From positions 2,699,586 through 2,763,585 of the forward strand of contig LR594584.1 of assembly GCA_901538445.1 (NCBI GenBank): a DNA stretch of 64,000 nucleotides, read 5' to 3'. The translations under genes and the position numbers were made by a program. The notes beneath the pieces are model-generated. The model had not been told where the DNA came from. It saw nothing but the letters and a program-made list of their open reading frames with translations, and ran no database searches. Shown here one piece after another: positions 43,044 to 61,164 of this stretch (positions are counted from its first letter, which is position 1; each line of letters starts with the position of its first letter). The stretch is from Gemmataceae bacterium. Its GTDB lineage: Bacteria > Planctomycetota > Planctomycetia > Gemmatales > Gemmataceae.

Positions 43044-46000
43044 ATGCGAATTGCCCCGACCCGATGGTGGTCATCACTGACGGCCCTCGTCGCAGTGATC
43101 GGCACGCCCGGCGCTCAGGCCCAGCACACCTCACCTCTTGCGGTGCGGACAACCGACATCGACGCCGAGAAGTCGCTCCTGACAGTGAACGGGAAGCCCG
43201 AGGTGCCGACCCCCGCCGCGCTGCGTGCGGTGCTGGGGCTCTCGGCACCGAAGGACGCCGGCGGGGCGCGGCAGGCCGAGGCGTGGGAGTTGCGGATCGC
43301 GTTCCGCGAGCCGGTCACGGTCGGCACGGTGGTGTTCCTCACCGGTAACGACCGGAACACCGCATCGGTTCTCCGTCCGGACTCCGAGGGCGAACCCGCC
43401 AAGGCCGCCGACGCCGACTGGCTCCCGATCGGTCCGTCTCGGGTGCTGCCACCCGGGACGCGGGTCCGCGCCGTTCGCCTTACTGGACGGCACTCGAACT
43501 GGCACCCTAACCTGGTCCGGTGCCTGCTCCTCGCACCCCGATTCGACAGCGCCACGCCCGACGCAGTCGGCAGCGGCGAGCCCGGCCCGTTCGGGTCGCA
43601 CCCCAACGCGATCCCCAACGGCGAGGTCTGGGTCAATGCCGCTCCCGATCCCAACCCTGGTGCGGCGAAGCAGACACCCCGCGGTCCGGTCAGCGACGCG
43701 CTGCCATCGTGGTACATCCTCTCGTGGGACAAGCCGCAGGCGCTCCGCGGCCTGCGGGTCCGCGGGAACGCCGAGAAGTACGCGCTCTTCGCGTACCGCG
43801 GCGACCCGAAGCAGAACCCCGCTTTGGCCGGCCCCCGCGACTGGGAGGCGCTGCCGCTCGACGTAGTGATCGAGGTCGGCGAGAGTGCCTCTGACCGCTT
43901 CATCCCGCTGCCGCCGACGGAGACGCTGGCCGTTCGCCTCACGATGACGAAGACCCGCGGCGGGGCCGTCGCGTCCGTCGAACGGTTCGACGCGCTCACC
44001 GACCTCGGCGACCGCCCCGTCCCCGCCCGCAAAAGCGAACTCGCCCCGTTCCCGATCGCCTACGACCAACCGTTCGACGGGACGCTGGCGATGGCCATCA
44101 CCGACGCGGCCGGGAAGCCCGTTCGCACCCTCGTCGCTCAGGTGGACCGACAAAAGGGAAAGCGGGTCGAGAACTGGAACCTGCGCGACGACGAGGGCAA
44201 CGTCGTCTCACCCGGCGAGTACCGGTGGAAGGCGATCACCGCTCCGCCGCTCGACCTGCGGTATCAGTTCAGCGTGTACCCGAACGTCGCGAACCACCAC
44301 CCGGACCGGCTCCCGTGGCTCACCGGCGAGTCCGGCCCGAACGGGTGGCTCGCGGACCACTCGTCGCCGTCGTCCGGCGCGGCCCGCGGCGACAAGGTGT
44401 ACTTCGCCGCACCGTGGGTCGAGTCCGGCGTGTCGCTCATCGAGTGCGACCAGACCGGGAAGAAGCTCTGGGCGCGGCACAGCTTCGCCGGCTTCTCCGG
44501 CCCGGATCACGTCGCTGCAGAGGCCGACGCGGTGTACATCCTCTGCCGCGACAAGCTCGAACGCATGGACCCGGCGACGCACGAGTGGACCCGGTTCGGC
44601 TCGGTCTCCCGGCCCGGCCGCGGCGGGGCGGTGACCGGAATGGCCGCGCACGGCGGGAAACTGTTCGTCGCCTTCCACGGAGCCGATCCGGCATTTGAGA
44701 ACGCGGCACGCGCCGGCGACGTGGACGTCGAGCGCTGCCTCCCGGTGTACCCCGAGCGAATCGCCGACCCGACCGGCACGCGGCGGGTGGCCCCCAACCC
44801 GCGGCAGGAGTTCTTGCGCCTGCTTCGACTTACGGGGTCGCCCTCGGGCCAGAACTACCCCCCGAAGGACCGCCGCGAGGGGCACTTCCCCATCGACCTC
44901 GAAACCGTCGGCGACGCCCGCGAGCAGTTCGTCCTCGTCGCGTTCAAGACCGCCGTCCCGCTCGGCAGCATCGTCTTCCCGTGCCCCGGCCCCGAGTACC
45001 GGGTCGAACTCGCGGCGCTCAAGGCGAACGCGGCGTACCCGGCAAATCCGAAGGACACGAAGGCGTGGGAGCCGTTCGCGACCAAGCCGACGGCCGGGTG
45101 GGTGTGCGTGGCCGCACCGCCCGAGACGACGACACGCGCCCTGCGGGTCCGGGTCACCAGGGCCGGCGACACCAAGGTTGCGGACGACTTGTTGACCGAT
45201 CTGCTCGACACGAAGCCGAAGGTGACCGACACGCCGAGCATCGACGGCGGCCTCGGCGGCAAGAAGGATCCTTCGGGGATCGGCGGCCCGGCGGCGGCCG
45301 AGTGGTTCGCGCGGATCGAGGGGATGCGGCTCCTCCGCCGCCGGTTCGAGCCGGTGGCCGACGTGCGGGTCCGCGTGAACTCCGGGTCGGTCGGCAGGGA
45401 CGGCGTGTGGGACGCGGCCCGCACCGAAGCGCTTTCGCAGGAGAAGCCCGGCGTGTACGTCCTCGAATGGGACAAGGCGCAGCCGGTCAGCGGCCTCGCG
45501 ATCAAGGAGATCGACGGGGCACGGACCGAGATCGACGTGTGGGACGGAGCCGTGGCCGGCCCGGTCGCACTCGATGGCGCGACCGGATGGAAACACCTCG
45601 CGACCTACAACCAGGTGCGCCGCGACTCTTACGAGCCCGGCTTCGAGCGGAACGACTGCGCCCGCTACCTTGATGGAATGGTGGACTTCGGAGGGCCGGT
45701 CACAACCCGTGCGGTCCGGCTCCGGGTCGTGGCGCAGTGGACCGACAACGGCGAGCGCGGCACCGCGTCCGGGCAACGAAACCGAGAGGGCCGGTCGCTC
45801 GACCTGCGGCGGTGCAAGGTCCACGGCGTTCTGGCGCTCAAGCCGCTCGGCGGGGAGCCCGCGCTCGACCCGGTCGCCAACCGCCGGATCGAGGTGCGCG
45901 ACGGCAAGACCGGAGTGTTGAAGAAGGAACTTTCCGCGACCGCCATGGGCGGCCTCGTGGTCGGGCCAGCGGGCGAGCTGTACACGGTCCGGGCCGGCCG

Positions 46001-48278
46001 CGTTACGCAGATCGACCCGGAGACCGGAGCCGCGAAGGCTGTCATTCCTGCGGTGAATGGCACCGATATCAAAGCCTCGCGGGTCGCGGTCGGTCCCGAC
46101 GGCACCTTCTTCGTCCACGTCCTCCCGCAGCACGTCGTTCAGGTCTACAAGCCGAACGGCGACCTCGTGCGGACGATCGGCAAGCCCGGCGGTCAGCGGC
46201 CCGGCCCGTGGGATCCGGAGAAGTTCGCGTCCATCTCGGCACTCGTCGCGGACGGCCGCGGCGGGCTGTGGGTGGTCGAGAACCAGGACAAGCCGCGCCG
46301 CATCGTGCAGTACGCACCGGACGGCGCGCTCGTGGCCGAGCACCTCGGTAACACGAACTACGGCGGCGGCGGCGTCCTCGACCGGTTCGACAAGTCGCGG
46401 CTGTTCTTCGGCCGAGTGCAGTTTGAGATCGACTGGGCGACCGGTAAGTCGCGGGTGAAGAACCTGCTCGCGGAGCACCTCCCCGACGACCTCGTGCCGG
46501 TGCGGTTCCGCGGCCGCACGTACCTCGCGTCCGCCCCGCTGTCGCACCAGCCGACGATGTCCTCCGCTCGCGTCTACCTGCTCGACGAGGCCGCCGGGAC
46601 GGCGCGCCCGGTGGCCGCGTTCGGTGAAGCGGAAAACGTCGAGCTGCTCGAAGTCACCTCGGTGCTTGCGAAGCTCGCGCCGGGGAAGGTGCCCGCCGAT
46701 TACACGTTCCTGTGGACCGACCGCAACGGCGACGGCAGAGCGAGCGCCGACGAGGTCGAGTGGGAGTTGAAGCCGGCCGTTACGGGCCGCTCGCAGCTCG
46801 GCCGGTTCAACGAGGCGTTCCGCCTGCGCGCCGGCCCGTGGCTCTACGAGCCGACCGACGTGCTGCCGGGCGGCGCGCCGGTGTTCGTGAAAAAGGCCGC
46901 CCCCGCCCCAGGCCTCTACGAACTGGCCGGCGGGCGCGTCCTGGCGATGAACGAGCGTAACAAATCGACCGGTCGCGACGGCGCTCCGGGCCACACCGTG
47001 GTTCGCTCACCGGACGGCAAGCCGGTGTGGAAGTACGAGACGTCGTACTCCGGCGTGTCGGGGCTCTTCCTCCCGCCTTGGAGCCCAGGATACGTGACGA
47101 ACGAGTTCGGCGTCATCGGGCACGAGACCGAGACCCGCGGCGACCTCGGCGAGTTCTTCGTCACGAGCGGCAACAACGGCCGGTGGAACCTGTGGACCGC
47201 CGACGGCCTGCTCGCGGGGCACGTGTTGCGGCACAAGCTCGACCCGCGGGGCCGCGACCTCAACACGTTCCGCGACGGGAGCCGCGGGGCCGAACTGAAC
47301 GACCTGACCGGCGGCCAGGAGCACTTCCACGCCTTCCTCACGCGCACGGACGCCGACGGCAAGACGTACATCGTCCACGGGCACAACCTGATCGCGGTCA
47401 CCGAGGTGCTCGGCCTCGACCGCTTCAAGCGGCTGTCCGGGGCGCTCACCGTTTCGGCCGACGACATCCGCCGCGTGCGCGCGTGGGACACCGAGCAGGC
47501 CCGCAAGGAGGTGAAGAGCCGCGCCCGGGTCGCGGAGTGCGTGCTGACCAAGTCGCAAACGCCGCTCGAAGCGGCCGCGATGGACGGCGCGAAACTCGCG
47601 CTGGGGTACGACGACAAGTTCCTCTACGCGAAGTGGACCGTCGAGAGCCAGGGGCAACTGAAGAACGCGGGGACGGACTTTCACCGGTACTTTAAGACCG
47701 GCGCGTACGTCGATCTTGTAATCGGGGCCGACCCGGCCGCGGACGCGACCCGCCGGGCTCCGGTCGCCGGCGACGTGCGGGTGCTCATCACCACTGTTGA
47801 TGGCAAGTCGCAGGTCGTGCTGTACCAGGCAGTCGCACCCGGCGGCGCGGGAGCGGACGCCTGGGAGACCACGACCCCGGCCGCGGGGACGACGAGATTC
47901 GACCGCGTCGTGCGGTTCCCGGACGCGGTGGTCGCGGTGCGCCCGACGAACGGCGGCGGCTACACCGTCGAGGCCGCGCTCCCGCTCGCGGCGCTCGGAC
48001 TCAAGCCGGCCGACGGGGCCCGCCTGCGGTTCGACTGGGGCGTCCAATCCACCGACGACGGCGCGACCGCGAAGCGCCGGGGGTACTGGAGCAACGTCCT
48101 CGCGAACGGGACCACCGACGAGGCGATCGAGGCCCGCCTCGAACCGCACCTGTGGGGCACGCTAGTGTTCGCGCTGAAGTCGGCCGAGGAGCGCCGCATC
48201 GACGGCCCCACCGGGTCTGGTCGCGACCCGAAGAACGACCTCGACTCGATCCTCGACGGTCTGAAGAAAAAGCCGTGA
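43044..48278 (+). CDS. Giant secreted multidomain protein A (FlgD-like, propeller, CBM9-like)
   Basis: The 1744-residue product starts with a signal peptide (SLTALVAVIGTPGAQAQ). An N-terminal beta-rich region is followed by an FlgD-like Ig fold at about residues 340-400 (ITDAAGKPVRTLVAQ, then VVSPGEYRWKAI). The centre holds discoidin-like stretches and NHL/WD-like blades (SRVAVGPDGTFFVHVLP, RIVQYAPDGALVAEHLG). An EF-hand-type loop DRNGDGRASADE lies at about 1226-1237. The C-terminus resembles a CBM9-like sugar-binding domain (GADPAADATRRAPVAGDVRV). It probably binds or processes a polysaccharide outside the inner membrane. A paralogue lies immediately downstream in reverse orientation. No catalytic residues are identified. 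Confidence 0.82.
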   Translation: MRIAPTRWWSSLTALVAVIGTPGAQAQHTSPLAVRTTDIDAEKSLLTVNGKPEVPTPAALRAVLGLSAPKDAGGARQAEAWELRIAFREPVTVGTVVFLTGNDRNTASVLRPDSEGEPAKAADADWLPIGPSRVLPPGTRVRAVRLTGRHSNWHPNLVRCLLLAPRFDSATPDAVGSGEPGPFGSHPNAIPNGEVWVNAAPDPNPGAAKQTPRGPVSDALPSWYILSWDKPQALRGLRVRGNAEKYALFAYRGDPKQNPALAGPRDWEALPLDVVIEVGESASDRFIPLPPTETLAVRLTMTKTRGGAVASVERFDALTDLGDRPVPARKSELAPFPIAYDQPFDGTLAMAITDAAGKPVRTLVAQVDRQKGKRVENWNLRDDEGNVVSPGEYRWKAITAPPLDLRYQFSVYPNVANHHPDRLPWLTGESGPNGWLADHSSPSSGAARGDKVYFAAPWVESGVSLIECDQTGKKLWARHSFAGFSGPDHVAAEADAVYILCRDKLERMDPATHEWTRFGSVSRPGRGGAVTGMAAHGGKLFVAFHGADPAFENAARAGDVDVERCLPVYPERIADPTGTRRVAPNPRQEFLRLLRLTGSPSGQNYPPKDRREGHFPIDLETVGDAREQFVLVAFKTAVPLGSIVFPCPGPEYRVELAALKANAAYPANPKDTKAWEPFATKPTAGWVCVAAPPETTTRALRVRVTRAGDTKVADDLLTDLLDTKPKVTDTPSIDGGLGGKKDPSGIGGPAAAEWFARIEGMRLLRRRFEPVADVRVRVNSGSVGRDGVWDAARTEALSQEKPGVYVLEWDKAQPVSGLAIKEIDGARTEIDVWDGAVAGPVALDGATGWKHLATYNQVRRDSYEPGFERNDCARYLDGMVDFGGPVTTRAVRLRVVAQWTDNGERGTASGQRNREGRSLDLRRCKVHGVLALKPLGGEPALDPVANRRIEVRDGKTGVLKKELSATAMGGLVVGPAGELYTVRAGRVTQIDPETGAAKAVIPAVNGTDIKASRVAVGPDGTFFVHVLPQHVVQVYKPNGDLVRTIGKPGGQRPGPWDPEKFASISALVADGRGGLWVVENQDKPRRIVQYAPDGALVAEHLGNTNYGGGGVLDRFDKSRLFFGRVQFEIDWATGKSRVKNLLAEHLPDDLVPVRFRGRTYLASAPLSHQPTMSSARVYLLDEAAGTARPVAAFGEAENVELLEVTSVLAKLAPGKVPADYTFLWTDRNGDGRASADEVEWELKPAVTGRSQLGRFNEAFRLRAGPWLYEPTDVLPGGAPVFVKKAAPAPGLYELAGGRVLAMNERNKSTGRDGAPGHTVVRSPDGKPVWKYETSYSGVSGLFLPPWSPGYVTNEFGVIGHETETRGDLGEFFVTSGNNGRWNLWTADGLLAGHVLRHKLDPRGRDLNTFRDGSRGAELNDLTGGQEHFHAFLTRTDADGKTYIVHGHNLIAVTEVLGLDRFKRLSGALTVSADDIRRVRAWDTEQARKEVKSRARVAECVLTKSQTPLEAAAMDGAKLALGYDDKFLYAKWTVESQGQLKNAGTDFHRYFKTGAYVDLVIGADPAADATRRAPVAGDVRVLITTVDGKSQVVLYQAVAPGGAGADAWETTTPAAGTTRFDRVVRFPDAVVAVRPTNGGGYTVEAALPLAALGLKPADGARLRFDWGVQSTDDGATAKRRGYWSNVLANGTTDEAIEARLEPHLWGTLVFALKSAEERRIDGPTGSGRDPKNDLDSILDGLKKKP

Positions 48279-48330
48279 CCGGTTTGTTCGGCCCCTTTCG
48301 GTGGGACCGAACGCACGTCACGGAAAGGGC

Positions 48331-48375
48331 GAGGCCCGTCACCCGCGCTCGCAAGTGCGGCGGGTGACGGGCCTC
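48331..48375. terminator. Perfect 16-bp-stem terminator shared by the giant genes
   Basis: 48331-48346 (GAGGCCCGTCACCCGC) pairs exactly with 48360-48375 around a 13-base loop. It lies 52 bases from the stop of gene A and 28 bases from the stop of gene B, and is symmetrical, so it can end transcription from both sides. Confidence 0.7.
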
Positions 48376-48403
48376 GTCTCATCTCGCACGAACCGGAAGC
48401 GGA

Positions 48404-51400
48404 TCACGGCTCGAGCAGCGCGTCCACAGACGCCTCCTCGAAACGGAACTCGCCCCACAGGTTCGGGTGGACGCGTGCCTCGGACGGCAGGTCGCTCAGC
48501 ACGACCAGCGACCGGTTCGCCCAGTAGTACCGGCCAACGGTGGCGACGCCGTTCGGGTCGGCCGTCAGGAACCCGAGGTCGCCGCGGAGGACGCCGCCCT
48601 TCGCGGGCGGCTTACCGCCGAGCGCCGCCCACGGCACCGCCGCTTCCAGCGCCCACCCGTTCGGCCCCTGCCGCACCTGTCCCTTTACCTTCGCCAGCAC
48701 GCGGACCTCGTCCACCTCCAGTTCGCCGACGGGCGACTTGAACACGGTCGGCCTCGCGGGCCGCGGCGCGAGGCGGTAGCGGTACAACAGGGCGACCGGT
48801 TTGCCCCCGACGACCGAGAACACGACCCGCACGTCGCCCGGGACGGCGTCGGCGCGCGTCGCGTCGGCGGCCGGGTCGAGCCCCAGGTGCAGGTCGAGCC
48901 CGTCCCCCTTCTGGAACAGGACCGACGTGTCGGTCGCCGCGTTCCGCAGCGGGCGGTCGCCAGTCACGGTTCCCGCGACGTACAGGTGATCCGCGTCGTA
49001 GGCGAGCTTCGCCCGCCACTCACCGGCCGGCTTGCCGCTCACGTCTCGGGTCGTGCGGACGGTCACCTCGGGCACGCCCTTCCAGTCGGTCAGGACGTCG
49101 CCGTCCAGCACGGGCGGCCTGGTGAGCGGGCGGACCGGGTACACCTTCGGCCCCTCGGCGGCGAGGAACCGCTCGACGCGGGCCTTCGTTGCGACCCACG
49201 CCCCGGCCTTCTCCAGGTCCGCCGCGGGGACGGTCACGGTGCCCTTCACCCGCTGCATCCGCTCCAGGCCGTCGACGCGCATCACGGTAATGTGGTTCTT
49301 GCCTGCGATGGCGTACACCTTCCCGTCGTTCGCCTTCGTGACGTGCCCGTGAAAGTTCTCGACTGTCTTACGCAGGTCCGACAGGTCGGTGACCCCCGGC
49401 TCGCAGTCCGAGATCGAGAAGTACCGCTTGCCGTACCCCCGCGGGCCGCCGACGATCGCGGCCGCCAGGAGTCCGTCGGCGGTGAAGGCGTAGTAGTCGC
49501 CGTTGTTGCCGTTCACGCACAGGAGCTTTTCGCCGCCGACCTCGAACTGCCCGACCGGCCCGAGGCTGCCCGCAACCACGCCCGGCGGCCGGTCGGTGAA
49601 CCCCCACGGCGTCATGTACGACGCCTGGACCCCGGCGTAGCGGTCGGGGTAGGTCCACTGCGGCTTGCCGTCGCGGTCGAGGAACGTGTGCCCCATCACC
49701 AGCGTCTCGCCCGTGTTCGTGACCAGCGTCTCGCCCGTGAGGGCGGCGACTTCCTCGGGTTTCGCGGCGTCGTAGGCTGGCACGCCGTCCTTCCCGAACC
49801 CCGTGGTCCGCAGCCGCAAGCCCGGTGCGCCCCCGCCGCGGACGAAGTTCAGCGACAGGTCGTCGCCGATGTACGGCGACCGCGTGAGCGCCGCCGCGAG
49901 GAGTTGCACCTCGCTTGCGCCGGGCTTGCCGTCGCCGTCGGCGTCGCACCACACGAACGCGGTCGCGGCGGCGTTGCGGCCCTTCGCGGCCTGCTGGAGG
50001 TCCGGGCTGCGGGCGAACTCCTTCCAGTCCGAGAGCAGGCCTGTGGCGACGAGCGGCACGGCCACGCCGGCGCGCTCGACGCAGATGACCGCGGTCGGCC
50101 CCGCGTCGCCGAACGGGGTGACGACCGGGCGGTCGCCGACGAGGTAGCGCCGGCCGCCGACGTAGGTGGTGCGGTCCGGCAGGTACGAGCCGCCGCCGTA
50201 GGGCGCGAGCCGCGCTTCGAGCCGCGCCGTCCGCTTCTCCCAGTCGAGCCGGAACTTCATGCCCAGGTGGTTGACAACGGTGCGGTCGCCCGGGTCCATT
50301 ATCCCGCCCCCGCCGTAGTGCGTCGGTCCGAGCCACTCGGCCTCGTACTGGCCCTCGCGGGTCCACCGGCTGATCCGCTTCGGCTGGAACGTCTGCTCAA
50401 CGACCCACAGCTTGCCCGCGGTGTCGATGGTCATCGCGACCGGTTCGGTGAACGTCGCCGGGTCGTAGCGGCCGACCCCGCCGCCGGGCTTGCCGATGGT
50501 GCGGACGCCCTTCCCCGTCGCCGGGTCGAACACCTTGATCTGCTTCGCCTCGCCGTCGAGGACGTAGAGCAACCCGTCGGCGTCGAACACCAGCGCCCGC
50601 GGCCGCCCGGTTTGCTCGGGCGGAATCACGACCTCCAGGTCCGGGGCGCGGTCGAACTTGGTCAGGTCGCGGACCCGCACGACCCCCTTCGCGCACGCGG
50701 CGTACAGCACGCCGGACCGGTCGAACGCGAGCGCCGACGGTGCGGGCACGGCGAGGTGCCCGCGGACCTTTGCCTCCTTCCGGTCGCCTTCGGGCAGGTC
50801 CACAACGGTGATGCGCTGGGCGAGGTCGCCGCTGGCCTCGGTCTCTCTGCCGACCGGCTCCAGCGCGACGAGCCGCTCGAACCCGCCGGCCGCGGGCTTT
50901 CCAGCCCCGCTGCCCGACGGCCCCTCGACGATCCGCACCCGCAGCGCGCGGACGCTCAGGGTCGCACCGAAGTCACCGAGCAGCGCCCGCGGCGTGTGCC
51001 ACGAGAACCGGATGTCCGAGCGGTTCTGGCGGTGCTGGTACACCGGCTTCCACTTCGCGTCGTCGGCCAGGTCGGTCGCCGCGATCGCGGCGTCCTCGGG
51101 GCCGGTCCACACGTCCACGGTGACCCCGGCCCACTCCATCGGCCGCAGCAGGTTGAACCCGCGGAGCTTGACGGGCTTGTCCCACACGAGCGCCGCCGTC
51201 GCCGGATCAGCGGGCGAGAGCGGGCGGTCCGCTCCGCGGCGCACGTCCCACCCGCCGGCGTTTGTCGCCCGCCCCTCGCGGACGATCAACTTCGCCCCCT
51301 CCGCCGCGTCGCGGTAAGGCCGGTCGAGGACCAACGCATAATCGAGCGCCTTCAACTTGGGGCCGGTGAACACCAGCACTTTCGTGGTGACCGCCTCGGC

Positions 51401-53380
51401 GGGGACCGCGAGCCCCGGGCGCCCGGCGGGTGCCTTGAGCCGGACCCACAGCGCCGGGTCGTAGCGGTTCTTGAGGTCGTCGAGCAGGTCGAGCGGGTCG
51501 CCCTTCGCGGCCGGTGCGGTCGGCCCGTCGAGCGACGCGGCCGCCTCCTTGAACGCCGCCGGCAGCGCCTTGCCCTGCCGCAGCGCCCAGACCTCGACAT
51601 CCCCGTCGGGGACCACCACGCCGCCGACCGGCACCTCGCGGGTGAGCGCCAGCACCAGGGTGTTCGCGAGCGGTCCTTTCGTCGGGGCCGGGCCGAACGC
51701 GGCGGCGGTCGAACTCGTCATCGCCTGGAACGCCGAGAAGAACTGCTCGTACCTGTTCAACTCGGTGACGTGGACCTTGTGCGGCAGGATCTGCGGGACC
51801 GTCGCCTTCGTATCGAAATCGCCGGGGGCGATTGCCGACCGCACCCACGCGGGCGGGGTCGAGTTGACGCTCATGCACAGCGTCCCCGGCTTCGCGGCCG
51901 CACCGCTCTGCTCCGAGTGAATCCAGCTCTGCGACGGGGGCGGGACCTTGTCGCTGTGCTGCCACTTCAGCAGCGGCGTGCGGGCGAACCCGGCGGCCGG
52001 GTCGATGCGCGTCACCGCGTCGTTGTTGACCGCGTAGGCGTACCGCCCGTCGGACACGAGCCGCAGCGCACCCGGCGGATCCTGCCACACCTTCTTGCCG
52101 TCGCGGTCGGTCGCGATGAGCGCGACGCCAAACTCCGCGCCGCTCGCTCCGAAGAACAGCGTATCCCCCACGGAGCACACTGAGGTCGGCGGAGCGTGGT
52201 CGGCCATCCACCCGCCGCCGCCCGGCACCGGTGCGGCCCACGCGGGCTTGCCGGGGTTGTACACGGTCATCTCGTAGGTGAGCTTGAGTGGCGGCCGGGC
52301 GATGCCGCGGAAGTGGTACGTCCCCGGTTGAACCGGGCGGCCGTCGTCGTCGCGGAGGTCCCACGGTTCGAGGACCGGACCCTTGTTGCGTTCGACCTCG
52401 GCAACGAGCCGTCGGACGTGCTTGCCGGTCGCGTCGGTCACGTTGACCGCGACGAACCCGTCGAACGGCATCTCGAACGGCACGGCGAAGGGCGACGGGG
52501 GAACGAATGAGGTCGGTGAATGATCCTTGTCGCCGAGTGCGACGAGCGGGATCACACCCGCCTCGCCCTGCGAGTGGACGCGGACCGCCCGGGTGCGGGT
52601 TGCGGCCGTCGGCACCAGCACGAACGGCCCGCCGTCGGTGGTGACGGGCTTCCAGTCGGCCGGCTTCGCGAGCCGCGGGTGGACCTCGCTGGCGTCGGGG
52701 AGCGCGGCCACGGTCACCGGCTTCACCGGCGGCCGCGTCAGCACGACGCCCGCGATCGGCAGAGCATCGGGCCAGTAGCCGATCCACTCGTCAACCGGCG
52801 CGCCGCCGCGGGCGGTCGGCGGGAGCCGCCGCGTGGTGCGGCCGCCGATCGGTTCCGGGCTGTAGAAGCGCTGCTTCAAGAGGATGACGGGGTCGAGTAC
52901 GCTCGATCGGGCGACCGCGTCCCACGGAAAGTTGTGGACCTCGTAGGTGAACCGCAGTGCCCGCACCGTCGTGCCGGCGGGGAGCGTGCGGACCGGTCCG
53001 GCCGCGAGCGGCTGCCAGTGCGCCTCGTTGAGCGGGTCGCCGGGGAGCGGCGCGTCGGCCCTCAGGACTGCGACGAGCGGGCACGCGGTGCAGACGGTTC
53101 CGAGGGCGACCGGCTTCTGAAATGCCACACGGAAGTGCCGCCGCTCGCGCGCCACCGGGCCGGTCGACCACGCGCCGGAGTCGGCCGGCGGCGCGAGGCC
53201 CAGGAGCGCCGCAAGCGCCCCCTTCGGGGCCGGCCCGAGGTCGCGGCCGTCGCCGTGCGCAGTGCAGCGAGCGTAGTCGATGTCGGCGGCGGTCACCGCC
53301 AGGGGCGCGTCCGCGGCCGCGAGCGGCGGCGCGGCGAGGAGCGCAAGCAGGAGCCCGGGGAGGAGGCGGGTGGGTGGCAT
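48404..53380 (-). CDS. Giant secreted multidomain protein B, paralogue of A
   Basis: The 1658-residue product has a signal peptide (LLPGLLLALLAAPPLAAA). It repeats the layout of protein A: the opening VTAADIDYARC region, an FlgD-like fold (VTDATGKHVRRLVAEVERN, then PVQPGTYHFRGI), NHL-like blades (PSALAFDRSGVLYAACAKG, ARALVFDADGLLYVLDGEA), an EF-hand-type loop DADGDGKPGASE (about 1146-1157) and a CBM9-like C-terminus (GLDPAADATRADAVPGDVRV). The match to A runs nearly end to end, so duplication is clear. The ATG at 53378-53380 gives the signal peptide; a longer upstream frame is not supported. The two genes converge on one hairpin. Likely a polymer-binding exported protein. Confidence 0.82.
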   Translation of the reverse strand: MPPTRLLPGLLLALLAAPPLAAADAPLAVTAADIDYARCTAHGDGRDLGPAPKGALAALLGLAPPADSGAWSTGPVARERRHFRVAFQKPVALGTVCTACPLVAVLRADAPLPGDPLNEAHWQPLAAGPVRTLPAGTTVRALRFTYEVHNFPWDAVARSSVLDPVILLKQRFYSPEPIGGRTTRRLPPTARGGAPVDEWIGYWPDALPIAGVVLTRPPVKPVTVAALPDASEVHPRLAKPADWKPVTTDGGPFVLVPTAATRTRAVRVHSQGEAGVIPLVALGDKDHSPTSFVPPSPFAVPFEMPFDGFVAVNVTDATGKHVRRLVAEVERNKGPVLEPWDLRDDDGRPVQPGTYHFRGIARPPLKLTYEMTVYNPGKPAWAAPVPGGGGWMADHAPPTSVCSVGDTLFFGASGAEFGVALIATDRDGKKVWQDPPGALRLVSDGRYAYAVNNDAVTRIDPAAGFARTPLLKWQHSDKVPPPSQSWIHSEQSGAAAKPGTLCMSVNSTPPAWVRSAIAPGDFDTKATVPQILPHKVHVTELNRYEQFFSAFQAMTSSTAAAFGPAPTKGPLANTLVLALTREVPVGGVVVPDGDVEVWALRQGKALPAAFKEAAASLDGPTAPAAKGDPLDLLDDLKNRYDPALWVRLKAPAGRPGLAVPAEAVTTKVLVFTGPKLKALDYALVLDRPYRDAAEGAKLIVREGRATNAGGWDVRRGADRPLSPADPATAALVWDKPVKLRGFNLLRPMEWAGVTVDVWTGPEDAAIAATDLADDAKWKPVYQHRQNRSDIRFSWHTPRALLGDFGATLSVRALRVRIVEGPSGSGAGKPAAGGFERLVALEPVGRETEASGDLAQRITVVDLPEGDRKEAKVRGHLAVPAPSALAFDRSGVLYAACAKGVVRVRDLTKFDRAPDLEVVIPPEQTGRPRALVFDADGLLYVLDGEAKQIKVFDPATGKGVRTIGKPGGGVGRYDPATFTEPVAMTIDTAGKLWVVEQTFQPKRISRWTREGQYEAEWLGPTHYGGGGIMDPGDRTVVNHLGMKFRLDWEKRTARLEARLAPYGGGSYLPDRTTYVGGRRYLVGDRPVVTPFGDAGPTAVICVERAGVAVPLVATGLLSDWKEFARSPDLQQAAKGRNAAATAFVWCDADGDGKPGASEVQLLAAALTRSPYIGDDLSLNFVRGGGAPGLRLRTTGFGKDGVPAYDAAKPEEVAALTGETLVTNTGETLVMGHTFLDRDGKPQWTYPDRYAGVQASYMTPWGFTDRPPGVVAGSLGPVGQFEVGGEKLLCVNGNNGDYYAFTADGLLAAAIVGGPRGYGKRYFSISDCEPGVTDLSDLRKTVENFHGHVTKANDGKVYAIAGKNHITVMRVDGLERMQRVKGTVTVPAADLEKAGAWVATKARVERFLAAEGPKVYPVRPLTRPPVLDGDVLTDWKGVPEVTVRTTRDVSGKPAGEWRAKLAYDADHLYVAGTVTGDRPLRNAATDTSVLFQKGDGLDLHLGLDPAADATRADAVPGDVRVVFSVVGGKPVALLYRYRLAPRPARPTVFKSPVGELEVDEVRVLAKVKGQVRQGPNGWALEAAVPWAALGGKPPAKGGVLRGDLGFLTADPNGVATVGRYYWANRSLVVLSDLPSEARVHPNLWGEFRFEEASVDALLEP

Positions 53381-57609: not shown

Positions 57610-58027
57610 TCACTTCGTGGTGAGATCGAAGTTGAACTCCTGCAGCGGTTGGTCGGTGACCTCCGCGGACAGGCCGGACTTGTCGCAGAAGAAGTATTTC
57701 TCGGGCAACGCTTTCTTGTCCCAGTTCATCTGCCCCTTCTCCTCGACGCCCCACACGTCGAAGGACACCAGGTACTTTCCCGGCTTGATCCCGTCCTCGG
57801 GCTTCAGGGAGCCGAGGCGGTAGCGGCCGTCCGCCCCGATGTTTGAAGAGCACGGGCGGAGTCCGATGTTGCTTTCGGCCGGGAAGAACACGATCAGCCC
57901 CTGAGTCAGCGGCTTCCCGTTGAGCTGGACGCGGCCGACAACCTGGACCCGGCCACCGTTGTCCGAACACCCCGCCGCGAGAAGTGTGGCGAAAAAGAGT
58001 ACGGTAGAGGCGATGAACTGGCACCGC

Positions 58028-58038
<11 letters not shown>
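57610..58038 (-). CDS. Lipoprotein with transthyretin-like fold
   Basis: The 142-residue product has a lipobox-type signal ([14 protein letters not shown], Cys at about residue 23), then a beta-sandwich with [40 protein letters not shown] and [10 protein letters not shown]. This is the carboxypeptidase-regulatory/transthyretin-like pattern common in planctomycete lipoproteins. It overlaps the preceding DUF1559 gene by 11 bases and is therefore in the same transcript. It probably sits on a membrane facing the periplasm-like space and may be a cargo or partner of the pilin-like protein. The upstream in-frame ATG adds only unsupported residues. Confidence 0.82.
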
Positions 58039-59050
<1,012 letters not shown>

Positions 59051-59080
59051 GGGGCACCTCCGTTGGTGGAAGGGAGTCGG

Positions 59081-60604
59081 TCAGCGGGTGCCGGGGGCGA
59101 GCCAGTCGGCCCGGCCCCACCGGCGGGCGTTGTGGAACACGAGCCCGGTCTCGCCGGGGGTCAGCACCTCGATCAACTGTCCCCGCCACACGCGGCCGGC
59201 GGCGTCGGCCCAGTGGACCTGCCAGCAGATGCCGGTCGCGTCGCCGGGGCGGGGGCGGGCGTCCGGCCCGGCGAGCGCGGCCCACGGCACCGCGTACTCC
59301 ATCGTGTACCCGCGGCCGTCGGGCCACCGCTTCGCCGCGCCGGACACGCCCGCGGGGTTGCGGCGCTTGCCGTGCTCGTCCATGCCGAACGAGGCGTCGA
59401 GGCACGCCCGGTCGTCGGGCCGCGAGTACCACAGGATGAGGTGGTTCAGCCGCTCGCTCGTGTTCTGCGGGGTCGGCGGCCGCTTCAAGTTCAGGTCCGG
59501 CTTCCGCTGATCGACGGGGTAGCCGAGAGTCGCGTCGGTGCTCAGGCGGACGATCACGGAGCCGCCGGCCCACGTCTCGATGCCGGTCGCGACGTCAGCC
59601 CGGTTCCGAAGCGGGTTCGGGTCGGCGACCTCGGCCGCGAGGTACAGAGCGGTGTCGTCATACGCCGCGAACAGCGTCGCCCGGTACGCCTCGTCGAACG
59701 GCGGGTCGCACCGCCCGCTCACGGCGAGGGCGCGGTCCCACTCGCCGAGGTCAGCGTCGATCCGCGGGGGCCGCGGGGCGAACGGGATCCGCATCCCGCT
59801 GCTCGTCGCCTGGTTGTACGGCGTCTTCTGGTCGTTGCCGGTCCCCGGGCGGGTCTCGAACGGTGGCATCTCGCGGACGAACCGGGTCGCGTCGAACGCG
59901 ACCGCCCGGCCCGAGTCCGTTCCGCCGAACCGGACCGCGTCGCCGGCCGCGATCTCGCGGTCCCCGGCGCGAACCGTGCCACCGTAGACCTGCACGACAG
60001 TTTCCCCATCGGAAGACACCGCGACACCGAACTCGGACGCGCCCTCGGTGACGCGCGCGGCTGGGGTATCGAGCGCAAACTCGCCCGCGTCCGCCGGAAC
60101 CTTCGCCGCGAGCCGACCGTTCACCAGCACGCCGCGGGCCGGCCCGGCGAGGTCGAGTTCCGCCGGGCCTTCGAGGACGACGACGGTCCCGCTCTGGAAC
60201 GTCACCTCGGCGAGCCCGGCGACGAGCCGCACCCGGCCGCTGGTCAGCGCCGCGTCGCCGTCGGCGAGTTCGCCCTGGAGTGCGGTCAGCGTCGCGAACG
60301 CCCGCGGGCTCGCGGCCGGCCGCAGCGCCACCCACGCAATGAGAACCGCCGCGGCGCACCCGGCCAGTGCGAAGGCCGCACGCCGCCAGGTTCGCCGGAC
60401 CGGCGGCGCGGCGGGCGCGGGCAGGGCCGCGAACCGCTGCCGCAGGCACACGTGCAGGTGGACCGCGTCCTGGTACGCCGGCCACAGGTCGGGGTGGGCC
60501 GCGAGCAACTCGTCGAGCGCGGCGAGGTCACCCGGCGTCGCTTCGCGCCAGCAGAGCCTCTCGACAACGGCGGCGAGTCGTGCCGCGGGGGTCTCGTCGG
60601 TCAT
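59081..60604 (-). CDS. FecR-like membrane protein with CBM9-like C-terminal domain
   Basis: The 507-residue product has a cytoplasmic N-terminal region (VVERLCWREATPGDLAALDE), a transmembrane helix at about residues 73-91 (AAFALAGCAAAVLIAWVAL), then a FecR domain (LTSGRVRLVAGLAEVTFQSG, VVLEGPAELDL). The C-terminus is CBM9-like (RIDADLGEWDRALAVSG, TALYLAAEVADPNPLRNRAD). FecR proteins usually control the ECF sigma factor encoded upstream. The fusion to a sugar-binding-like domain suggests a ligand-sensing role. The ATG overlaps the sigma stop in an ATGA, so the two are coupled. The C-terminus resembles the same region of the giant paralogues. Confidence 0.82.
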   Translation of the reverse strand: MTDETPAARLAAVVERLCWREATPGDLAALDELLAAHPDLWPAYQDAVHLHVCLRQRFAALPAPAAPPVRRTWRRAAFALAGCAAAVLIAWVALRPAASPRAFATLTALQGELADGDAALTSGRVRLVAGLAEVTFQSGTVVVLEGPAELDLAGPARGVLVNGRLAAKVPADAGEFALDTPAARVTEGASEFGVAVSSDGETVVQVYGGTVRAGDREIAAGDAVRFGGTDSGRAVAFDATRFVREMPPFETRPGTGNDQKTPYNQATSSGMRIPFAPRPPRIDADLGEWDRALAVSGRCDPPFDEAYRATLFAAYDDTALYLAAEVADPNPLRNRADVATGIETWAGGSVIVRLSTDATLGYPVDQRKPDLNLKRPPTPQNTSERLNHLILWYSRPDDRACLDASFGMDEHGKRRNPAGVSGAAKRWPDGRGYTMEYAVPWAALAGPDARPRPGDATGICWQVHWADAAGRVWRGQLIEVLTPGETGLVFHNARRWGRADWLAPGTR

Positions 60605-61164
60605 CGCCGGCCCTCCGCGGCCAGTGTTCGGGTCACGCAGTCCGCGAGCATCTCGCGGACGCGAGCGGCCGCCTTGTAGACCGCCTTCGCGGTCATCTTG
60701 AGGCGCTCGGCCGCCGCGCCGATGGTGCTGTCGGCCGCGTAGCACGTCTCGATCAGTGTCCGGTCGGAGGGGGAGAGCTTCTCCAGGCACCCGGCGAGCG
60801 CGTCGCGGCGGGCCTCGTGGTGGGCGGTCCGGTCCGCGGCCGCCAGCAGCGCCGCCTCGAACCGCTCGCCGAAGGCGTGCCGGTCGCGGCCCTTCGCCCG
60901 GCGGTCCCGCAGCACCCGGTGGTACGCGACCCCGCACGCCCACGCCGGGAAGTTGCCGCCCGAGGTGAACCGCGGGAAGTTCTTCCACAGGGCGAGGCTC
61001 GTTTCCTGCATCACCTCGTCCGCGTCGTGCCAGTCCCGCACGAGCGAGAACACGTAGGCGTAGATCTCGCGCTGGTACTGCGTGAAGAGGCGCAGGAACT
61101 CGGCGTGCCGGGAGGGGTCTTCCGGCACCGGGAGTTCATCGGTTGGTGGGCGTTCCGGCGACAC
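60601..61164 (-). CDS. ECF RNA polymerase sigma factor
   Basis: The 187-residue product has sigma region 2 (LFTQYQREIYAYVFSLVRD, then DADEVMQETSLALWKNF) and region 4 (LSPSDRTLIETCYAADSTIG, then AAERLKMTAKAVYKAAARVR). The lack of a long N-terminal domain and the distance between regions place it among the ECF group found in planctomycetes. The start is GTG, with GAGGGGG about 5 bases upstream. Its stop overlaps the FecR-like gene by 4 bases. It most likely transcribes a group including the downstream FecR, DUF1559 and lipoprotein genes, although no own-promoter motif was identified. Confidence 0.88.
   Translation of the reverse strand: MSPERPPTDELPVPEDPSRHAEFLRLFTQYQREIYAYVFSLVRDWHDADEVMQETSLALWKNFPRFTSGGNFPAWACGVAYHRVLRDRRAKGRDRHAFGERFEAALLAAADRTAHHEARRDALAGCLEKLSPSDRTLIETCYAADSTIGAAAERLKMTAKAVYKAAARVREMLADCVTRTLAAEGRR

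What the first reader, a model, noticed from the sequence alone, without database searches (positions are those of the whole stretch)
43044..53380. Two giant secreted paralogues placed tail to tail
Proteins of 1744 and 1658 residues share nearly end-to-end architecture: opening beta region, FlgD-like fold, propeller blades, one EF-hand-type loop and a CBM9-like end. They account for about 10 kb and converge on a single exact 16-bp stem. An inverted duplication with divergence suggests a two-component surface or polysaccharide-handling machine that I cannot match to a named system. The FecR-like protein at 59081-60604 carries a similar C-terminal domain.
Basis: partly seen in the sequence, partly recalled or inferred. 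Interest (0 to 1): 0.7.

Follow-up and report, generated by a model that had tools for sequence, protein, structure and literature searches.

The report
Two ancient giant glycan-binding-type secreted paralogues
Two neighbouring giant secreted proteins belong to an unnamed family, found across the Planctomycetes/Verrucomicrobia group, that is built from sugar-binding-type domains around a beta-propeller; they are old relatives that ended up side by side, not a recent mirror-image duplication, and they probably help hold or sense polysaccharides outside the cell.

Summary
A (1744 aa, +) and B (1658 aa, -) are convergent, similar along their whole length (24-50% identity by domain), each with a signal-peptide-like start, and share one order: jelly-roll, discoidin-like domain, FlgD-type Ig, beta-propeller, a second discoidin-like domain, NHL blades, one conserved EF-hand-type loop, a genuine CBM9 fold. 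The hairpin between them is a perfect 17-bp stem, unique in the genome and terminator-like. The 'inverted duplication' reading fails: A sits in a clade spanning Planctomycetota, Verrucomicrobiota and Lentisphaerota; B, known only here and in one congener, lies outside it, and A+B as a genus-level duplication is rejected (AU p about 1e-64). In the congener both genes exist but are not adjacent. Both belong to an unnamed PVC-wide family (27/392 Planctomycetota genomes sampled; 59 database loci). Members of different subfamilies recur side by side in other genomes (9 of 81 loci), once around an alpha-L-fucosidase gene; other members lie in sugar-transport or glycosidase loci. A third homologue in this genome is fused to an ECF sigma factor but broken by one stop codon. 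Best reading: secreted glycan-binding or sensing scaffolds. A dedicated two-component machine is not supported.

The parts
43044..48278 (+). Gene A, 1744-aa secreted-type protein of the FlgD-Ig / propeller / EF-loop / CBM9 family (A-clade)
   Evidence: 84% identical orthologue in G016
43044..43124 (+). A: signal-peptide-like leader (residues 1-27, ...GAQAQ)
   Evidence: read from sequence; no signal-peptide predictor was available
43125..43538 (+). A: N-terminal jelly-roll region (res. 28-165)
   Evidence: mapped from B's model and alignment
43539..44027 (+). A: discoidin/CBM32-like domain 1 (res. 166-328)
   Evidence: the model of B has a fucolectin/CBM32-type hit for this half
44040..44267 (+). 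A: FlgD-type Ig domain (res. 333-408), the best conserved domain between A and B (50%)
45351..45875 (+). A: discoidin-like domain 2 (res. 770-944)
   Evidence: model of B; family alignment; assignment by position and strand pattern, not by a separate fold search
45876..46445 (+). A: NHL propeller blades (res. 945-1134)
46719..46754 (+). A: EF-hand-type loop DRNGDGRASADE (res. 1226-1237)
47511..48173 (+). A: CBM9-fold domain (res. about 1490-1710)
   Evidence: Pfam CBM9_1 18.9 bits, under cut-off; fold on B model; family alignment
48174..48275 (+). A: charged linker and C-terminal tail ...DLDSILDGLKKKP, typical of the A-clade
48330..48376 (.). 17-bp perfect hairpin between the convergent genes, bidirectional terminator-like, unique in genome
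48404..53380 (-). Gene B, 1658-aa secreted-type paralogue
   Evidence: 68% identical orthologue in G016
53309..53380 (-). B: signal-peptide-like leader (res. 1-24)
   Evidence: read from sequence
52511..53308 (-). B: jelly-roll and discoidin/CBM32-like domain 1 (res. 25-290)
   Evidence: AlphaFold model, mean pLDDT 74; Foldseek hits fucolectin 3cqo E 2.9e-5, CBM32 pair 7jnb E 8e-4
52271..52498 (-). B: FlgD-type Ig (res. 295-370)
   Evidence: Pfam 21 bits; FlgD 7eha rmsd 2.7 over 68 columns
50825..51310 (-). B: discoidin-like domain 2 (res. 691-852), inside the insert that splits the propeller
   Evidence: model; by position and strand pattern
50231..50824 (-). B: NHL blades (res. 853-1050)
49910..49945 (-). 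B: EF-hand-type loop DADGDGKPGASE (res. 1146-1157)
48443..49171 (-). B: CBM9 fold (res. 1404-1646)
   Evidence: VIA-align Z 17.5 to 7nwn (179 aligned, rmsd 2.7), Z 17.2 to 1i82
59081..60604 (-). FecR-like protein with C-terminal CBM9 domain, in an ECF-sigma gene row 10 kb away; relative of the FecR-CBM9 gene beside a family member in G049

Best explanation
A and B are two anciently diverged members of an undescribed PVC-superphylum family of giant exported proteins whose invariant core is FlgD-type Ig, NHL-type propeller with one calcium-type loop, and CBM9 fold, decorated in the long subfamily with discoidin/CBM32-like modules. The most likely role is non-catalytic glycan handling outside the cytoplasm: the CBM9 and discoidin-like modules grip polysaccharide or released oligosaccharide, while the propeller and Ig part form a rigid scaffold that presents it to separate enzymes, transport or sensors. 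The two genes are independent transcription units ending at a shared hairpin; their adjacency is not a duplication scar. Shown here: architecture, folds, distribution, phylogeny, recurring co-location, sugar-type neighbourhoods of relatives. Inferred: export, glycan binding, scaffold or sensor role.
For: CBM9 fold at Z 17; fucolectin/CBM32 and FlgD hits in the N-half; NHL profile hits in the PDB sequence search. Core residues and EF loop invariant or nearly so in the relatives. Extra N-terminal CBM9 copies in relatives L045, L096, L100. Neighbourhoods: two members flank and nearly overlap an alpha-L-fucosidase gene in L082; apiosidase and F5/8-domain nucleoside-hydrolase-like genes in a row with a member in L044; sugar-type ABC transporter and AraC regulator before a member in L152; LacI regulator, aldo-keto reductase and GHL15/GHL6-like protein in L153; enolase-superfamily genes right after members in L131 and L150; glucose/sorbosone dehydrogenase after the L100 pair. 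Among 73 immediate neighbours LacI-type, GntR and AraC regulators are the commonest (6, 4, 3).
Against: No catalytic or transport gene lies beside A and B themselves except a PF00756 esterase 0.7 kb upstream of A. Long-type members have no single conserved neighbour (at most 7 of 48 loci). LacI regulators are abundant in some of the genomes concerned (58 in G157, at least 150 in G453), which weakens that part. Sugar-contact residues of CBM9 could not be mapped; the profile match to CBM9 sequences is weak (E 0.003). CBM9-like and discoidin folds can also bind non-sugars.
Confidence: 0.6

Rival explanations
1. The two proteins form a dedicated two-part machine: A and B (or an A-type with a second-type member) assemble as a hetero-complex on the cell surface.
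For: Members of different subfamilies lie side by side in the window, G321 (L081/L104), G162 (L175), L082, L097, L098, L100 and in three Phycisphaerae with a conserved tandem pair (L154, L155, L157). Nine of 81 loci hold a second member in the flanks against roughly 1% expected for scattered copies (inference from copy numbers). G105 and G299 share one pair type.
Against: The exact A+B pair was found in one more genome and is not adjacent there; A-type genes occur without B in dozens of genomes; the window pair is convergent, not an operon; most members are solitary.
Confidence: 0.15
2. The family is mainly sensory: the propeller/CBM9 module reads a carbohydrate signal outside the membrane and passes it to ECF-type transcription control.
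For: A third homologue in this genome is an ECF sigma factor with a hydrophobic, TM-like stretch joined to the FlgD/NHL/CBM9 module; a member in G049 follows an ECF sigma gene and a FecR-CBM9 gene; many ECF proteins with large C-terminal parts exist in these bacteria.
Against: The fused gene is interrupted by one in-frame TAG and the fusion was found in no other of 102 Gemmatales genomes; A and B carry signal-like leaders and no sigma part.
Confidence: 0.15
3. Local inverted duplication in this lineage followed by divergence.
For: Tail-to-tail placement and end-to-end similarity.
Against: A groups with genes from several phyla and B lies outside; forcing A, B and their congener orthologues together costs 154 log-likelihood units, AU p 1.7e-64; the congener lacks the arrangement.
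Confidence: 0.03
4. Structural surface or cell-envelope proteins without specific glycan function (adhesion, coat).
For: Giant size, many beta domains, a conserved charged C-terminal tail in the A-clade, giant TPR neighbours in 7 of 48 long-type loci.
Against: Sugar-utilisation neighbourhoods of several relatives and the CBM9 fold.
Confidence: 0.2

Closest known systems
CBM9 carbohydrate-binding modules (Thermotoga maritima Xyn10A CBM9-2, PDB 1i82; Caldicellulosiruptor 7nwn)
   Same: Fold of the C-terminal 240 residues, Z 17
   Different: Not attached to a catalytic domain in A or B; sequence match weak; sugar-contact residues not checked
FlgD Ig-like domain (PF13860)
   Same: Sequence and fold of res. 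295-370 of B
   Different: No flagellar context; part of a secreted-type giant protein
NHL-repeat propellers (PF01436; PknD, TRIM2, BRAT)
   Same: Repeat signature and blade fold
   Different: The propeller is split by an insert of about 300 residues and carries an EF-type loop
Planctomycete ECF sigma factors with C-terminal WD40 parts (described in PMC8567305)
   Same: The third homologue has the same plan: ECF, hydrophobic stretch, propeller
   Different: Its propeller module is the FlgD/NHL/CBM9 type, found fused only here, and the gene is interrupted
Bacteroidetes surface glycan-binding proteins and periplasmic propeller sensors (BT4663-type)
   Same: Possible analogy in role: non-catalytic glycan capture; BT4663 appears only as a generic propeller hit
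   Different: No homology over length; no SusCD or hybrid two-component partner seen

Membership tests
CBM9 (fold) | beta-sandwich CBM9 fold | tested here: met
   Z 17.5, 179 residues aligned, rmsd 2.7 to 7nwn; Foldseek TMt 0.72
CBM9 (sequence family PF06452) | score above Pfam gathering cut-off | tested here: not met
   A 18.9 bits against 23.4; no listed hit for B
CBM9 (function) | conserved aromatic/polar sugar-contact residues and sugar binding | tested here: inconclusive
   weak profile alignment to 1i82 does not cover the contact loops; no binding assay possible
FlgD_ig PF13860 | score above cut-off | tested here: not met
   24 and 21 bits against 27 for A and B; a relative passes at 38 bits
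NHL PF01436 | score above cut-off | tested here: not met
   19.3 bits against 20 for B; a relative passes at 26.9
Any named full-length family (NCBIfam, Pfam) | whole-protein model above cut-off | tested here: not met
Unnamed PVC FlgD/propeller/EF/CBM9 family defined here | collinear core with conserved EF loop and CBM9 end | tested here: met
Recent tandem/inverted duplicate pair | the two copies are each other's closest relatives | tested here: not met
Polysaccharide utilisation locus | co-located CAZymes and transporter | tested here: not met
   scanned window neighbours carry only one esterase; seen in part in some relatives' loci

The most novel reading that the evidence does not exclude
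This is a PVC-centred, modular class of giant extracytoplasmic glycan scaffolds whose members work as heterologous neighbours (different subfamilies encoded side by side, once around a fucosidase) and whose core module has also been placed on an ECF sigma factor as a carbohydrate sensor: a planctomycete counterpart of the Sus-type capture-and-sense apparatus.
Probability: 0.15. Interest if true: 0.7.

Novelty: new variant of a known kind. Interest (0 to 1): 0.42.

Why it matters
How planctomycetes capture large polysaccharides is poorly understood, and in Gemmatales CAZymes are not especially co-localised (PMC11131199). A widespread, unnamed family of giant exported-type proteins with CBM9 and discoidin-like folds, repeatedly found in sugar loci, is a concrete candidate for the capture step. 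It would let a large block of 'hypothetical' sequence across Planctomycetota, Verrucomicrobiota and Lentisphaerota be annotated, and it gives testable binding modules.

Tried and rejected
The first genome-contig scan with B alone found nothing, because B is nearly private to this genus; an alignment of all members was too divergent for patterns, and the A-clade alignment then gave 59 loci. A conserved partner gene was sought by clustering neighbours of 81 loci: none is general; the commonest, giant TPR proteins, occur in 7 of 48 long-type loci. An enzyme domain in the long N-terminal parts of L081 and L094 was sought by Pfam and not found; L094's shows a weak propeller-type (SGL) match. The LacI/GntR neighbour enrichment was checked against genome counts and is weaker than it looks. 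PDB sequence search with A and B alone gave nothing solid. No plasmid record encodes A. Literature searches found no description of the architecture. Absence of fold hits for other parts is not taken as evidence.

Full report
What is there. Gene A (43044-48278, +) and gene B (48404-53380, -) are convergent open frames of 1744 and 1658 residues. Both begin with a signal-peptide-like leader. They align in two long collinear blocks at 31-32% identity. Measured by domain, identity runs from 24 to 50%, highest in the FlgD-type Ig domain. So the paralogy is real and covers the whole length.

Architecture. Pfam finds FlgD_ig, CBM9_1 and NHL only below cut-off; NCBIfam finds no family over its cut-off. 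AlphaFold models built on family alignments gave mean pLDDT 74 for B 1-600 and 79 for B 470-1658. The first matches fucolectin/CBM32-type jelly rolls and FlgD. The second contains NHL-type propeller blades and a CBM9 domain at Z 17 to 7nwn and 1i82. The EF-hand-type loop is conserved in 13-15 of 15 relatives. Relatives without the long insert (L044, L043 and others) show that the core is FlgD Ig, propeller, EF loop and CBM9, and that the middle is an insertion in the long subfamily. The second discoidin-like label rests on position and strand pattern, not on a fold search of its own.

The stem. Arms of 17 nt, perfectly paired, lie at 48330-48346 and 48360-48376. They fold far better than shuffles and are unique in the genome. 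The congener's A gene also ends at a hairpin, of unrelated sequence. This is a terminator-like gene end, not a duplication joint.

Distribution. 11 of 102 Gemmatales genomes and 27 of 392 genomes sampled across Planctomycetota carry the family; a pattern scan of GTDB contigs gave 59 loci, including Verrucomicrobiota, Lentisphaerota, Zavarzinella formosa and one assigned to Armatimonadota. Some genomes hold six or seven members. Several record titles in that list (for instance Proteobacteria, Klebsiella, Akkermansia) are MAG names and are not used as taxonomy here.

History. In two trees A belongs to a fully supported clade of 16 to 22 rows from several planctomycete families and other PVC phyla; B pairs only with its congener orthologue and branches outside. 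An AU test rejects A, B and their congener orthologues as one clade (p 1.7e-64). In the congener G016, A (84% identical) and B (68%) lie on different contigs, each with about 3 kb of unrelated sequence downstream. The inverted-duplication reading is therefore rejected; how the two came to be neighbours here is not known.

Pairs. Neighbouring members recur: tandem in L081/L104, L082, L097, L098, L100, L154, L155, L157 and L175. In those placed in the tree the neighbours fall in different clades; for L082, L097 and L100 one partner is very divergent and its place is unsure. In L082 the two members flank and nearly overlap an alpha-L-fucosidase gene. This keeps alive the idea of cooperation between different members, though not of a specific A+B system.

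Function. Relatives sit in sugar contexts: apiosidase row (L044), sugar-type ABC transporter with AraC regulator (L152), LacI regulator with a glycosidase-like gene (L153), enolase-superfamily genes (L131, L150), glucose/sorbosone dehydrogenase (L100). Regulators of LacI, GntR and AraC type are the commonest immediate neighbours, but LacI genes are numerous in some of those genomes. The long subfamily has no constant neighbour. Glycan binding by non-catalytic exported scaffolds is the best inference; binding itself is untested.

A sensor variant. The own genome's third homologue (L036:4258-8427, -) joins an ECF sigma factor and a hydrophobic, TM-like stretch to the FlgD/NHL/CBM9 module. One in-frame TAG interrupts it. 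Its closest relatives in other genomes lack the sigma part. ECF factors with WD40 parts are known in planctomycetes (PMC8567305). In G049 an ECF gene and a FecR-CBM9 gene related to window 59081-60604 precede a family member.

Limits. Gene calls in relatives come from a simple codon-usage script. Signal peptides were read by eye. Models are multi-domain, and whole-chain TM scores are low; domain assignments rest on the local matches. The pair statistic is rough, and some pair genomes were examined because a pair was already visible.

Noticed in passing
L036:4258-8427 (-), own genome contig C3 about 1497257-1501426: ECF sigma factor fused through a hydrophobic stretch to a FlgD/NHL/CBM9 module, interrupted by one in-frame TAG at L036:6241-6243; fusion seen in no other Gemmatales genome searched.
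   Followed up: partly
window 48174-48275 (A tail) and C-termini of the A-clade: Charged linker plus a C-terminal motif such as DILDDLK or EDLLNDLK (at the very end in Verrucomicrobiota) in 32 of 85 complete members against 8 of 639 neighbouring proteins; possible docking or sorting signal, absent from the short subfamilies.
   Followed up: partly
L082:5613-14049 (+): Two family members directly flank an alpha-L-fucosidase (GH29-type) gene with gaps of 15 and -3 bases.
   Followed up: partly
L106, L118, L122, L125, L132, L137 and L111: Giant TPR-repeat proteins (up to 2603 aa) lie next to or near A-clade members in several PVC phyla.
   Followed up: partly
L114, L131, L134 (and L150 for the MoxR-like gene): MoxR ATPase / DUF58 / BatA-VWA type gene clusters lie close to A-clade members.
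   Followed up: partly
window 57610-61164: ECF sigma, FecR-CBM9, DUF1559 pilin-like and small protein genes in one direction; a similar ECF plus FecR-CBM9 pair stands before a giant family member in G049 (L045:7152-9310).
   Followed up: partly
L154, L155, L157: A tandem pair of members from two subfamilies with the surrounding gene order conserved in three Phycisphaerae genomes.
   Followed up: no
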